Shown here: positions 2,186 through 6,003 of the stretch, in pieces
Layout: every line of letters starts with the position of its first letter
How positions within the stretch are numbered: the first letter of the stretch is position 1
Assembly: GCF_014197915.1 (NCBI RefSeq)
Contig: NZ_JACIGK010000010.1
Location: 1 to 64,000 of the forward strand
Reading direction: 5' to 3'
DNA: 64,000 nt
Source: Roseospira visakhapatnamensis
Lineage (GTDB): Bacteria > Pseudomonadota > Alphaproteobacteria > Rhodospirillales > Rhodospirillaceae
Notes under the pieces: model-generated
The model's database searches: none
Seen by the model: only the letters and a program-made list of their open reading frames with translations
Told to the model about the DNA's origin: nothing
Translations under genes and position numbers: made by a program

Positions 2186-2223
2186 GGGAGAACCTGTCTG
2201 TTGTGGGAAACCAGGACGTCAGC

Positions 2224-3255
2224 ATGAACCGTGCATTCGACGGCGGTCTTGAACGATCGTGCCGCGCGAGGCCGGGGGCGGTTCGTCCCGGCGGCGGTGA
2301 CTGGGTGCGCCAGACGGCGGATGGAGACGGGCTGTTGCGCCTTGAGGCGTTTTTCGCCGGTCACGCCTATGATCCGCACCGCCACGACACCTATGCCATC
2401 GGCCTGACGGATGGCGGGGTGCAGTGCTTCACCTATCGGGGCGCCCATCGGACCAGCGCGCCCGGCACCCTCATGGTGTTGCATCCCGACGAACGCCACG
2501 ACGGCGAGGCGGGCGCGGCGGCGGGCTTCCGCTACCGGATGATCTATGTCCCGCCCCATCGCATCGCCGTGGCGCTGGCCGGACGCGCGCGAGCGCTGCC
2601 CTTCGCGCGCGCGGCCCTGACGCGCGACCGTCGCCTGCGGCGGGCGGTCGCGCCCGCCCTGGCCGACATGGCGCGGCCGCTGGAAGAGTTGGAGGCCGAT
2701 CAGGTGACCCAGGAGGTGGCCGAGGCATTGCTGTCCCTGGATCCCTCCGCCGCGACGGGGCGGACCCGGGGGGCGTCGTGCCCGGCTTCGGTGGAGCGCG
2801 CGCGGCAGATCCTGGACGCCCATTGCGATCGCGTGGTGACGTCCGCCGAGTTGGAAGCGGCGACCGGGCTGGACCGCTATACCCTGGCCCGCCAGTTCCG
2901 GGCGATGCTCGGCACCAGTCCCTACCGCTACCTTACCCTGCGCCGGCTGGACCGGGCCAGGACCGCCCTGCTGGGTGGGGAAAGCCTGGCCGGGGCGGCC
3001 TGCGCGGCCGGGTTCGCCGACCAGAGCCACATGACCCGGCACTTCACCCGGACCGTCGGCATATCCCCCGGCCGATGGCTGGCCCTGACCAACGCGACCC
3101 GTCACGACCCCAGCCTAGACGACCCCAGCCTGGACGACCCTGTCGTCGCCACCCCCTCACCCCACCAGCGCGTGCCCGAGCACGGACCACAGACCGAGAA
3201 CCAGGAACAGCGACGCCAGGGCCAACCCCTCGCGCACCAGATCGGCGATGGATAA
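2224..3255 (+). CDS. AraC-family transcriptional regulator
   Basis: About 343 residues. An N-terminal cupin-like sensing domain (HRHDTYAIGLTDGGVQCFTYRG) is followed by two helix-turn-helix motifs (AGFADQSHMTRHFTRTVGIS is the characteristic second one). ATG 2224 is preferred because AGGA lies 7 bases upstream; GTG 2203 is the alternative. After the usual end of the AraC fold there is a tail of about 60 residues that starts with a DPSLDDPSLDDP duplication and is rich in Gln, Glu and Pro. That tail lies antisense to a likely small gene on the other strand, so it may be read-through rather than selected protein. The divergent DUF2000 gene is the obvious candidate target. Confidence 0.85.
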   Translation: MNRAFDGGLERSCRARPGAVRPGGGDWVRQTADGDGLLRLEAFFAGHAYDPHRHDTYAIGLTDGGVQCFTYRGAHRTSAPGTLMVLHPDERHDGEAGAAAGFRYRMIYVPPHRIAVALAGRARALPFARAALTRDRRLRRAVAPALADMARPLEELEADQVTQEVAEALLSLDPSAATGRTRGASCPASVERARQILDAHCDRVVTSAELEAATGLDRYTLARQFRAMLGTSPYRYLTLRRLDRARTALLGGESLAGAACAAGFADQSHMTRHFTRTVGISPGRWLALTNATRHDPSLDDPSLDDPVVATPSPHQRVPEHGPQTENQEQRRQGQPLAHQIGDG

Positions 3256-3267
3256 GGTCGGGGACAT
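3157..3267 (-). CDS. 36-residue single-pass membrane peptide under LexA boxes
   Basis: A 36-residue peptide starting MSPTLSIADLVREGL, followed by one hydrophobic helix (residues 15-34, ALASLFLVLGLWSVLGHALV). A strong Shine-Dalgarno (GAGGAG) lies 8 bases before the ATG. Two LexA boxes lie about 50-90 bases upstream. The size, topology and SOS-type control resemble the Caulobacter peptide SidA, an inner-membrane SOS-induced division inhibitor of 29 residues; this is analogy, not demonstrated homology. The gene overlaps the 3' tail of the convergent AraC gene. The reading rests on the ribosome-binding site, the membrane helix and the LexA boxes, because the peptide is too short for codon statistics. 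Confidence 0.6.
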   Translation of the reverse strand: MSPTLSIADLVREGLALASLFLVLGLWSVLGHALVG

Positions 3268-3315
3268 GATCTGATCTCCTCTGCGGGGCGGTTCCTCAAC
3301 CACCGGACCACACAT

Positions 3316-3356
3316 GTTCTTTTTTTGTTCCACACAAAAAAGAACACAAAGAGAAC
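3316..3356. promoter_or_regulatory. Pair of oppositely oriented LexA (SOS) boxes
   Basis: GTTC-N7-GTTC at 3316-3330 and GAAC-N7-GAAC at 3342-3356 match exactly the direct-repeat LexA operator known from alphaproteobacteria, once in each orientation and 11 bases apart. A TTGACC sequence reading leftward (3366-3361) could be the -35 of a promoter for the 36-residue peptide, with the boxes covering the spacer and start region. The rightward MFS gene starts about 200 bases away and could also be affected. Confidence 0.72.
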
Positions 3357-3552
3357 ATCAGGTCAAGCCCCGACCAGAACGCCCGACGGCACCGGGGTCA
3401 CGTCTCCAGGGGCCTCGCGCACGGTTCAGCGGAGCCCGGCGGCGTGCGGGACGCGATCGGCGCCGCGCGCCACCGGCCGTCGTGCTAGCCTGACGCGGAC
3501 GCCTCCGGCACGGTCCGGATGACCGGAGGCGGCAACCGGAGGACAGCCCACC

Positions 3553-4830
3553 ATGACACGGGAGGCACCGACCCAGCAGGCCCCCGCACGAGGGGCCCCG
3601 GCCGGTGATCGCTGGGCCACCGCCCGGTTGATGCTGGTCGCCGGGTCGCTGATCCTGGCCATCTCGCTCGGCGTTCGCCACAGCTTCGGCCTGTTCCTCA
3701 CCCCGATGAGCCTGGACAGCGGATGGGGACGCGAGACCTTCGCCTTCGCCATGGCCGTGCAAAATCTGGTCTGGGGCGTGGCGCAACCGGTCGCGGGCCT
3801 GCTGTCCGACCGTCACGGCGCGGGCCGGGTGATCCTGGGCGGGGGCGTCCTGTACGCGGCGGGGCTGGCGGTGATGGCCCTCCCGCAGGAGGCGACGCTG
3901 TTCACCCTCAGCGCCGGGGTCCTCATCGGCCTCGGTCTCAGCGGGTGCTCCTTTCCGATCATCTTCGGCGCCATCAGTCGCGCCGTGCCCGCCGACCGGC
4001 GCAGCCTGGCCATGGGCATCTCCATGTCGGTCGGGTCCTTCGGCCAGTTCGCCATGCTGCCCCTGGTGCTGCCGTTGATCGGCGGCATCGGCTGGTCGTC
4101 GACGCTGCTGGTGCTCGCCACGCTGGCCGCGCTCATCCTGCCCCTGAGCCTCGCGCTGGCGGAGGGCCGCGACGCGGCGGCGCGGCCCGTCGGCGCCCCC
4201 GAGCCGACCGGTCCGACCGCCCGCCAGGCGATCGGCGAGGCCCTGGGCAGCCGCGACTTCTGGCTTCTATCCCTGGGCTTTTTCGTCTGCGGCTTCCAGG
4301 TGGTGTTCATCGCCGTGCACCTGCCGGCATACCTCCAGGACCAGGGGCTTCCGCCAACGGTCGCGACCACGGTACTGGCCTTGATCGGCCTGCTGAACAT
4401 CGCCGGGACGTATCTCGCGGGCGTCTGGGGCGGGCGGCACCGCAAGCCGATGCTGCTGGTGGGGATCTACCTGGCCCGGGCCGCCGCGATCGCCGCCTTC
4501 GTGATGCTGCCGGCCACCCCATGGTCCGCCTACGCGTTCGGCGTGACCATGGGGCTGTTCTGGCTGAGCACGGTGCCGCTGACCAACGAGATCGTGGCGG
4601 CGGTCTTCGGGGTGCGGAACATGGCCATGCTCGGCGGCGTGGTCTTCCTGGCGCACCAGATCGGATCATTCCTCGGCGGCTGGCTGGGGGGCATCGCCCA
4701 TGACCGCACGGGCTCCTATGACGCGGTCTGGTGGATCGCCATCGCCCTGAGCGTGGCCGCCGCCGCGCTGAACGCGCCGATTCGCGAGACGCCGCTTGCC
4801 CGGCGCCAGGCGGCGGGGGCGGCGGCATGA
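3553..4830 (+). CDS. Major facilitator superfamily transporter
   Basis: A 425-residue protein with 12 predicted membrane helices in two halves, joined by a cytoplasmic loop around residue 205-225. The loop after helix 2 carries the MFS signature in the form GLLSDRHGAGRVILGG. The overall pattern is that of the monocarboxylate/oxalate-formate antiporter type, but the substrate is not determinable. ATG 3553 follows a GGAGGA box. The stop codon overlaps the ATG of a 42-residue membrane peptide, so the two are probably translationally coupled. LexA boxes lie about 200 bp upstream but more plausibly serve the divergent small gene. Confidence 0.88.
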   Translation: MTREAPTQQAPARGAPAGDRWATARLMLVAGSLILAISLGVRHSFGLFLTPMSLDSGWGRETFAFAMAVQNLVWGVAQPVAGLLSDRHGAGRVILGGGVLYAAGLAVMALPQEATLFTLSAGVLIGLGLSGCSFPIIFGAISRAVPADRRSLAMGISMSVGSFGQFAMLPLVLPLIGGIGWSSTLLVLATLAALILPLSLALAEGRDAAARPVGAPEPTGPTARQAIGEALGSRDFWLLSLGFFVCGFQVVFIAVHLPAYLQDQGLPPTVATTVLALIGLLNIAGTYLAGVWGGRHRKPMLLVGIYLARAAAIAAFVMLPATPWSAYAFGVTMGLFWLSTVPLTNEIVAAVFGVRNMAMLGGVVFLAHQIGSFLGGWLGGIAHDRTGSYDAVWWIAIALSVAAAALNAPIRETPLARRQAAGAAA

Positions 4831-4955
4831 CGGGCCGCGTCGTGGGCGCGATCGCCCTGGGCCTGCTGGCGAGCCTGATGCTCGTCAGCCTCTTTCTGGG
4901 CTATACCAACCCGGTGATGACGCTGTCCCTCGATCGCCTGAGCGTCTGCTTCTAG
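4827..4955 (+). CDS. Small membrane peptide coupled to the MFS transporter
   Basis: A 42-residue peptide whose first 26 residues form one hydrophobic helix (AIALGLLASLMLVSLFLGY), followed by a short polar tail ending SVCF. Its ATG overlaps the stop of the transporter gene (ATGA at 4827-4830), the classic arrangement for translational coupling. It may be a small accessory subunit of the transporter; nothing identifies a family. It ends about 50 bp before dusA. Confidence 0.55.
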   Translation: MTGRVVGAIALGLLASLMLVSLFLGYTNPVMTLSLDRLSVCF

Positions 4956-5004: not shown

Positions 5005-6003
5005 ATGCACGACAAGCACCCGCATCGACTCTCGGTCGCCCCGATGATGGACTGGACCGACCGGCACGAGCGGTACTTCCTGCGCCTGATCAGCCGGCAT
5101 GTCCGGCTCTACACCGAGATGGTGACCACCGGCGCGCTGCTGCGGGGAGACGCGGCGCGCCACCTGGATTTCGACCCGGCCGAGCATCCCGTGGCGCTGC
5201 AACTGGGGGGCAGCGATCCCCGGGCGCTGGCCGCCGCCGCGCGCATGGGCGCCGCCTGGGGCTACGACGAGATCAACCTCAACGTCGGCTGCCCGTCGGA
5301 CCGGGTGTCCAGCGGCCGGTTCGGCGCCTGCCTGATGGCCGAGCCCGCCCTGGTGGCCGACGGGGTCGCCGCCATGATCGCGGCGGTGCCGGCGGACCTG
5401 CCGGTTACCGTCAAGCACCGCATCGGCATCGACGACCTGGACGGCGACGATCACCTGTCCCGTTTCGTCGAGACGGTGGCCGCCGCCGGCTGCCGGGTGT
5501 TCATCGTGCATGCCCGCAAGGCCTGGCTGTCGGGCCTGAGTCCCCGGGAGAACCGGGAGATCCCGCCGCTGCGCCCCGAGGTGGCGCGGCGCCTGAAGGC
5601 CGATTTCCCGGCCCTGACGATCGTCTACAACGGCGGGGTGCGGGATCTGGCCACGGCGGCCGACCACCTGCGCCACCTGGACGGGGTGATGATCGGGCGC
5701 GGCGCCTACGAGACGCCGTGGATGCTGGCAGAGGCCGACCGGACGATCTTCGGGGATCACGCCGCCAGACCGCCCGACCCGACGGCGGTGGCCCGCGCCA
5801 TGGCGGCCTATGCCGCGCGACGCATGGACGAGGGGGTGCCGCTGCACGCCATCACCCGCCACATCCTGCCCTTGTTCCACGGCATACCGGGGGCGCGCGC
5901 CTGGCGGCGTCACCTGAGCGAGCGGGCCTGCCGCCCCGGCGCCGGTCCGGAGGTCATCCTGGAGGCGCTGGCCCACGTCGCGCCGACGGCGGCGGTGTCC
6001 TGA
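5005..6003 (+). CDS. dusA: tRNA-dihydrouridine(20/20a) synthase DusA
   Basis: A 332-residue flavoenzyme that reduces uridines 20/20a in the D-loop of tRNA. It begins with the Dus hallmark SVAPMMDWTDRHERYF. It carries the active-site segment NLNVGCPSDRVSSG-x-FGACLM with the catalytic Cys, the KHRIGIDD phosphate/FMN region and the C-terminal GRGAYETPWML segment. The GCPSDRV...FGACLM form is characteristic of DusA rather than DusB or DusC. Length is normal for the family. It is convergent with ndk, with a shared hairpin between them. Confidence 0.93.
   Translation: MHDKHPHRLSVAPMMDWTDRHERYFLRLISRHVRLYTEMVTTGALLRGDAARHLDFDPAEHPVALQLGGSDPRALAAAARMGAAWGYDEINLNVGCPSDRVSSGRFGACLMAEPALVADGVAAMIAAVPADLPVTVKHRIGIDDLDGDDHLSRFVETVAAAGCRVFIVHARKAWLSGLSPRENREIPPLRPEVARRLKADFPALTIVYNGGVRDLATAADHLRHLDGVMIGRGAYETPWMLAEADRTIFGDHAARPPDPTAVARAMAAYAARRMDEGVPLHAITRHILPLFHGIPGARAWRRHLSERACRPGAGPEVILEALAHVAPTAAVS

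What the first reader, a model, noticed from the sequence alone, without database searches (positions are those of the whole stretch)
3157..3356. SOS-type LexA boxes driving a 36-residue single-helix membrane peptide
The sequence shows exact alphaproteobacterial LexA operators in both orientations (GTTC-N7-GTTC, GAAC-N7-GAAC), a strong ribosome-binding site and a tiny gene coding one transmembrane helix. In Caulobacter the SOS regulon includes SidA, a membrane peptide of 29 residues that blocks division. This may be an independent or divergent SOS division-inhibitor peptide in the Rhodospirillales. It is too short for standard annotation.
Basis: partly seen in the sequence, partly recalled or inferred. 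Interest (0 to 1): 0.82.

Follow-up and report, generated by a model that had tools for sequence, protein, structure and literature searches.

The report
SOS-controlled SidA-like membrane peptide, also phage-borne
A 36-residue membrane peptide gene, too small for usual annotation, is conserved together with its DNA-damage switch across a bacterial family, looks like a distant relative of Caulobacter's cell-division brake SidA, and has close relatives inside prophages of the same genus.

Summary
A 36-aa, one-helix peptide (3157-3267, minus) has a ribosome-binding site and two exact alphaproteobacterial LexA operators facing each other (3342-3356, 3316-3330). In the window's family, 52 of 73 genomes carry a confident chromosomal homologue. 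All 52 have an exact operator within 200 nt upstream and 46 have the same opposed pair; among the 29 genomes not used to build the profile it is 29 and 26. The protein is under purifying selection (pN/pS 0.08-0.35). dusA is the usual divergent neighbour (42 of 52), not a constant one. Relatives with operators occur in other families of the class. Caulobacter SidA (29 aa, LexA-controlled) is the closest known thing: profile comparison, a bridging sequence and the same design link them, but NCBI's curated SidA model passes none of the 73 genomes. I read it as a divergent SidA-like SOS division inhibitor acting on FtsW/FtsN; that function is inferred. Five further homologues in three genomes of the genus, without adjacent operators, lie in prophage-like regions, suggesting that phages took over the host's division brake. 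New variant of a known kind.

The parts
3157..3267 (-). 36-aa single-helix membrane peptide gene (SidA-like)
   Evidence: family conservation; pN/pS; one helix; no hit in Pfam or NCBIfam
3276..3280 (-). ribosome-binding site AGGAG, 8 nt before the ATG
   Evidence: read; one search prints the upstream sequence
3316..3330 (-). LexA operator GAACAAAAAAAGAAC, proximal to the peptide
3342..3356 (-). LexA operator GTTCTCTTTGTGTTC, distal, opposed to the first with an 11-nt gap
5005..6003 (+). dusA, the usual divergent neighbour of the peptide in relatives; here 1.7 kb away with an MFS gene in between; not part of the regulated unit
   Evidence: NCBIfam DusA 493.1 bits; divergent dusA in 42 of 52 genomes
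3553..4830 (+). MFS transporter between the operators and dusA in this genome; not part of the conserved unit
   Evidence: PF07690; coordinates
2203..3255 (+). AraC-family regulator ORF whose C-terminal tail overlaps the peptide gene antisense; not part of the unit
   Evidence: PF02311 and PF12833, domains end by residue 293; coordinates

Best explanation
It is a LexA-repressed gene for a SidA-like division inhibitor. LexA sits on one or both operators at the promoter and keeps the gene off. DNA damage activates RecA, LexA cleaves itself, and the 36-aa peptide is made. It inserts as a single inner-membrane helix and delays constriction by binding septal wall-synthesis proteins in the membrane (FtsW and/or FtsN), as SidA does. 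Shown here: gene, operators, their co-conservation, protein-level selection, predicted one-helix fold. Inferred: repression, induction, membrane insertion, target and phenotype.
For: 52 of 52 confident homologues (E <= 1e-5) among 73 family genomes have an exact operator within 200 nt, 46 of 52 as the opposed pair in the same order; in the 29 genomes not used for the profile 29 and 26. Gap 10-16 nt; proximal box ends a median 21.5 nt before the ATG. Exact single boxes number 116 in the 4.49-Mb own genome, about 0.5% per 200 nt. All 21 opposed pairs found in family genomes were read: 20 lead into this peptide, 1 into recA. pN/pS 0.08, 0.24, 0.35 in three genera. recA of the own genome has an exact box in its upstream region. 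SidA records show the same design: 29-30 aa, exact box within 150 nt in 52 of 80 loci, one-mismatch box in 27 of the other 28. Profile-profile score 22.8 over 26 columns; 0 of 300 full column permutations reach it. A 29-aa peptide in f88 bridges: family-only profile E = 5e-4, box upstream, 33 bits and E = 4e-8 on the SidA model. Prophage copies fit a peptide that stops host division, as other phage early products do.
Against: The curated SidA model passes 0 of 73 family genomes and does not hit the window peptide. With permutations that keep the charged pair or the first eight columns, 1 and 2 of 300 reach the score. Against helix decoys the SidA and family medians fall only in about the top 4-5% of the other profile's decoys. 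The bridging E-value is for one genome, and 60 were searched. No dusA near 80 sidA loci, within the fetched flanks of at most 2.5 kb. 21 of 73 family genomes have no confident homologue, among them all 8 of genus g15. The ribosome-binding match is 5-6 of 6 in 25 of 52, weaker in 27. No expression or phenotype data here.
Confidence: 0.7

Rival explanations
1. SOS-induced membrane toxin of the TisB/DinQ kind: the helix depolarises or perturbs the membrane and causes dormancy, controlled by an antisense RNA rather than by binding FtsW.
For: Same size, single helix and LexA operators; DinQ is an SOS-regulated toxic single-TM peptide with antisense RNAs (PMC3567139, abstract start).
Against: Only two sub-threshold Rfam matches in 2600-4000, both far from the peptide, though an undescribed RNA is not excluded. 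Prophage copies sit near primase-, repressor- and anti-repressor-type genes, an odd place for a dormancy toxin. A [KR][ED]xxAL motif shared with SidA suggests a specific partner.
Confidence: 0.17
2. A SOS division inhibitor that arose independently of SidA and only resembles it (a version of the best explanation without the common origin).
For: Curated SidA model fails; no shared gene neighbourhood in the fetched flanks; decoy ranking modest.
Against: Profile comparison, bridging sequence, same length class and operator placement.
Confidence: 0.25
3. The operators belong to the divergent gene (dusA or MFS) and the peptide is incidental.
For: dusA is divergent in 42 of 52 genomes, mostly within 360 nt.
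Against: In 10 of 52 genomes no dusA is in the fetched stretch yet the operators stay with the peptide; the proximal box ends a median 21.5 nt from the peptide ATG; members in other families keep boxes with no dusA hit in the fetched stretches.
Confidence: 0.03
4. A chance open reading frame.
For: Short, and antisense to the tail of an AraC ORF.
Against: pN/pS 0.08-0.35; homologues in 52 of 73 genomes.
Confidence: 0.01

Closest known systems
SidA of Caulobacter (NCBIfam NF033228; PMC4211646, passages)
   Same: One short helix (29 versus 30-36 aa), LexA operators just upstream, shared [KR][ED]xxAL and [YW] positions in one ungapped register
   Different: Below the curated model in all 73 family genomes; opposed pair of operators as the norm, whereas about 97% of Caulobacter SOS promoters carry one box (PMC12700426, passage); YLWS core instead of FVWMMC; usual neighbour dusA
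YneA / SosA / ChiZ of Gram-positives (PMC13396833, passages)
   Same: DNA-damage-induced small membrane proteins acting late in division, modelled on FtsW by AlphaFold 3 at low confidence
   Different: Those carry a LysM domain or an extended helix; this peptide ends with its helix
TisB / DinQ
   Same: Single-helix SOS peptides (DinQ: abstract start; TisB's SOS control recalled)
   Different: No recognised antisense RNA family here
Phage division inhibitors: lambda Kil (PMC3961180, abstract start), phiNM1 Gp11 (PMC11237401, abstract)
   Same: Prophage copies of this peptide lie among replication- and regulation-type genes; Gp11 is a small membrane protein that blocks division and disrupts FtsW recruitment
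   Different: What I saw of those papers does not relate them to a host SOS checkpoint peptide; here phage and host copies are close relatives

Membership tests
SidA (NCBIfam NF033228) | Scores over the curated cut-off of 35 bits | tested here: not met
   No hit for the window peptide; 0 of 73 family genomes over cut-off (its control rings in 7 of 14 named genomes, Caulobacter vibrioides among them, over the cut-off in 1 not named); 1 of 23 A1 members matches at all, best E 0.16
SidA (NCBIfam NF033228) | About 29 residues, one membrane helix | tested here: met
   30-36 aa in 52 genomes, 32 the commonest; predicted helix 7-35; insertion not tested
SidA (NCBIfam NF033228) | LexA operator at the promoter | tested here: met
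   52 of 52; binding itself not tested
SidA (NCBIfam NF033228) | Sequence homology to SidA | tested here: inconclusive
   Favourable. Unfavourable:
SidA (NCBIfam NF033228) | Same gene neighbourhood (not a strict requirement) | tested here: not met
   No dusA hit in 80 sidA loci with flanks of at most 2.5 kb
SidA (NCBIfam NF033228) | Binds FtsW/FtsN and blocks division | not testable with these tools
   Needs experiment
Alphaproteobacterial LexA operator | GTTCN7GTTC, also upstream of recA, in a genome with lexA | tested here: met
   an opposed pair also precedes recA in relative G020
TisB/DinQ type I toxin | Known antisense RNA family at the locus | tested here: inconclusive
   No Rfam family at threshold; an undescribed RNA is not excluded
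YneA/ChiZ | LysM domain outside the membrane | tested here: not met
   36 aa, ends with its helix

The most novel reading that the evidence does not exclude
Temperate phages of this genus captured the host's own SOS division-brake peptide, dropped its adjacent LexA operators and placed it among phage replication and regulatory genes, so that the phage rather than DNA damage decides when the host stops dividing. The host gene itself marks an unrecognised, widespread SidA-like checkpoint in alphaproteobacteria.
Probability: 0.5. Interest if true: 0.75.

Novelty: new variant of a known kind. Interest (0 to 1): 0.64.

Why it matters
SOS division inhibitors are hard to find because they are tiny and diverge fast. 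In a sample of 385 genomes of the class the curated SidA model passes only one, in family f88, which leaves open how other alphaproteobacteria stop dividing after DNA damage. Here the operator layout itself works as a probe: it located three family members (G011, G027, G030) that the first protein search had not reported. The prophage homologues offer a natural test of whether phages reuse the host's checkpoint peptide.

Tried and rejected
Rejected hits: L016, L023, L027, L028, L030 (in larger frames or without the signature) and doubtful L017, L029; none has a box upstream on the coding strand. Three opposed-box sites outside the family (L036-L038) show no such peptide downstream by my filter. 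Of the hits in f76 and f29, L062 and L282 have no box; L271 was misread and read properly (box present). Rows dropped: one f1 sequence and one SidA sequence from the blocks; 129 and 353 of 2,724 decoys received no score, and some decoys were fragments of true members. Conservation along the helix had no clear 100-degree periodicity, and its correlation between the two families is 0.53 in the proposed register but 0.48 one residue off. No match for a prophage copy in annotated phage records, nor for a family-like sequence in plasmid records. A viral-contig scan with SidA confirmed nothing. The nearest exact box to lexA found in the fetched stretch lies about 460 nt upstream, so autoregulation was not shown. 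Papers: passages only of PMC4211646, PMC12700426, PMC13396833, PMC4117421, PMC13384398; abstract and outline of PMC11237401; all others only in search listings. The original SidA paper is not held. Searches for print on such a family outside Caulobacter; no listed title or abstract start was about it, but lists were capped (one search shows 20 of 2,095) and most listed papers were not opened.

Full report
What is there. On the minus strand at 3267-3157 lies a 36-codon gene, MSPTLSIADLVREGLALASLFLVLGLWSVLGHALVG, with AGGAG eight bases before the ATG. Upstream are GTTCTCTTTGTGTTC (3356-3342) and GAACAAAAAAAGAAC (3330-3316), two exact alphaproteobacterial LexA operators facing each other across 11 nt. 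The published Caulobacter operator is GTTCN7GTTC (PMC12700426, passage). AlphaFold2 with 23 family sequences predicts one helix, residues 7-35, mean pLDDT 93.8. Pfam and NCBIfam have no match for the peptide.

Is it conserved? A profile built from 23 members found confident chromosomal copies (E <= 1e-5) in 52 of the 73 genomes of the window's family; 21 have none, including all 8 of genus g15. I examined all 52. Each has at least one exact operator within 200 nt upstream; 46 of 52 have the opposed pair, all in the same order, and 6 have one box. Three of the 23 profile members had been found through their operators, so I also counted the 29 genomes not used for the profile: 29 of 29 have a box and 26 the pair. 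For scale, exact boxes number 116 in the 4.49-Mb own genome, against 41 for the reversed control, about 0.5% per 200 nt. The gap between paired boxes is 10-16 nt and the proximal box ends a median 21.5 nt before the ATG. Peptide lengths are 30-36 aa, 32 the commonest. pN/pS is 0.08, 0.24 and 0.35 in three genera, so selection acts on the protein.

The reverse test. The opposed-operator pattern was searched in 60 relatives: 23 genomes have it, at 24 sites, while the reversed-pattern control gives 0 in all. Of the 21 sites in the window's family, 20 lead straight into the peptide and one, in G020, into recA. Three genomes found this way (G011, G027, G030) had not been reported by the first protein search. 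The three sites outside the family show no such peptide.

Whose operators? In 42 of 52 genomes a divergent dusA is in the fetched stretch. In the window dusA (493.1 bits) begins at 5005, beyond an MFS gene. In the other 10, which include the window's genome, no dusA is in the fetched stretch, yet operators and peptide stay together. So the operators follow the peptide.

Is SOS plausible here? The genome has lexA, and its recA (573.8 bits) has an exact box, GTTCGTTTTATGTTC, in its upstream region. No close exact box was seen at lexA itself.

Wider distribution. In other families listed as 'same class', members with boxes appear in f76 (L265, L266, L267, L284: boxes in the opposite, everted order, three boxes in L266 and L284) and in f29 (L268, L269, L271: one box each). 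L282 in f29 and L062 in f76 have none.

Relation to SidA. Caulobacter SidA is a 29-residue inner-membrane protein that interacts with FtsW and FtsN (PMC4211646, passages). From named genomes I kept 80 loci, the best of 148 confirmed, mostly titled Caulobacter, Phenylobacterium or Caulobacteraceae and including two Caulobacter vibrioides strains; they encode a 29-30 aa peptide. The curated SidA model gives the C. vibrioides OR37 peptide 72.7 bits against a cut-off of 35. Of the 80, 52 have an exact box within 150 nt; 27 of the other 28, C. vibrioides T5M6 among them, have a one-mismatch box, and one lies at a contig edge. Blocks trimmed around the acidic residue (22 family, 50 SidA sequences) were given to hhalign, which chose an ungapped 26-column alignment with probability 83.7 and score 22.8: [KR][ED]xxAL, then [GS][LV], then [YW]. 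Of 300 column permutations none reaches that; with the charged pair fixed 1 of 300 does, with the first eight columns fixed 2 of 300 do; reversed columns give 7.1. A 29-aa sequence in f88 with an upstream box (L093) is found by the family-only profile at E = 5e-4 for its genome, 60 having been searched, and scores 33 bits, just under cut-off, on the SidA model. Among helix decoys only fragments of true members score above it on the family profile, and none on the SidA profile.

Results against that link. The SidA model passes 0 of 73 family genomes and 1 of 385 class genomes, in f88. Of 2,724 helix decoys, 102 score at least the SidA median on the family profile and 116 at least the family median on the SidA profile, so direct sequence similarity is modest. 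No dusA lies in the fetched flanks of the sidA loci. I therefore do not file the peptide as SidA. I hold that it works like SidA and is probably a distant relative.

Prophage copies. Five more homologues occur in three genomes of the genus: G000 contigs C32 and C52, G003 C8 and C22, G001 C18; they are 44-59% identical to the window peptide. None has an exact box in the roughly 320 nt upstream examined, though the C32 prophage has one about 1.5 kb upstream. Their surroundings are prophage-like: on C52 a DNA primase (phrog_1139) and anti-repressor domains, on C32 a PAPS reductase (phrog_12882) and DUF2303, phage integrases at the G003 C22 and G001 C18 copies and an S24 repressor-like protein at G003 C8. 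The G003 C22 and G001 C18 loci show an 872-aa ORF closely resembling that primase. Phages are known to block host division, for example Gp11 of phiNM1 (PMC11237401, abstract). A phage that carries this peptide therefore fits division arrest better than dormancy; this is inference.

Mechanism. Shown: operators, gene, selection, fold prediction. Inferred: LexA repression, RecA-dependent induction, membrane insertion, binding to FtsW/FtsN, delay of constriction. For SidA itself two-hybrid interaction with FtsW and FtsN is reported (PMC4211646), and AlphaFold 3 models place it on FtsW TM7 at low confidence (PMC13396833).

Verdict. A real, conserved SOS-type peptide gene without a family model; a new variant of the SidA kind, with the prophage copies as the most surprising part.

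Noticed in passing
L031 (G000:C52), L033 (G000:C32), L034 and L032 (G003), L035 (G001): Prophage-like regions carry homologues of the host peptide (44-59% identity) without adjacent LexA boxes.
   Followed up: yes
L319 (G020:C13:188393-188436): In relative G020 the same opposed pair of LexA operators precedes recA.
   Followed up: partly
L305 position 1501 (G000:C28:32990): An AT-rich exact LexA box, GTTCTATTTATGTTC, about 240 nt upstream of an mraZ gene. If real, SOS may touch the division and cell-wall cluster.
   Followed up: no
L033 position about 6870 (G000:C32:11870): The prophage on C32 has an exact box, GTTCACCTTGTGTTC, about 1.5 kb upstream of its peptide copy, possibly at the head of the same operon.
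   Followed up: no
window 4827-4955 (+): A 42-aa hydrophobic ORF whose ATG overlaps the MFS stop codon (ATGA), suggesting translational coupling.
   Followed up: no
window 3103-3255 (+): The AraC ORF runs about 50 residues past its last domain; the end of this tail is antisense to the peptide gene.
   Followed up: no
L060/L266, L061/L267, L064/L265, L284: In family f76 the operators are everted (GAAC type first, then GTTC type), and L266 and L284 have a third box: a different operator grammar for the same kind of gene.
   Followed up: partly
G000:C13:22, C16:19, C21:19, C35:30506: The same 15-mer GTTCACTCTTCGTTC recurs, three times starting within 22 bases of a contig start, so a multi-copy element may contain a LexA-like site.
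   Followed up: no
phrog_30165: A phage family of unknown function (profile length 62) matches the window peptide weakly (E 0.0095).
   Followed up: no
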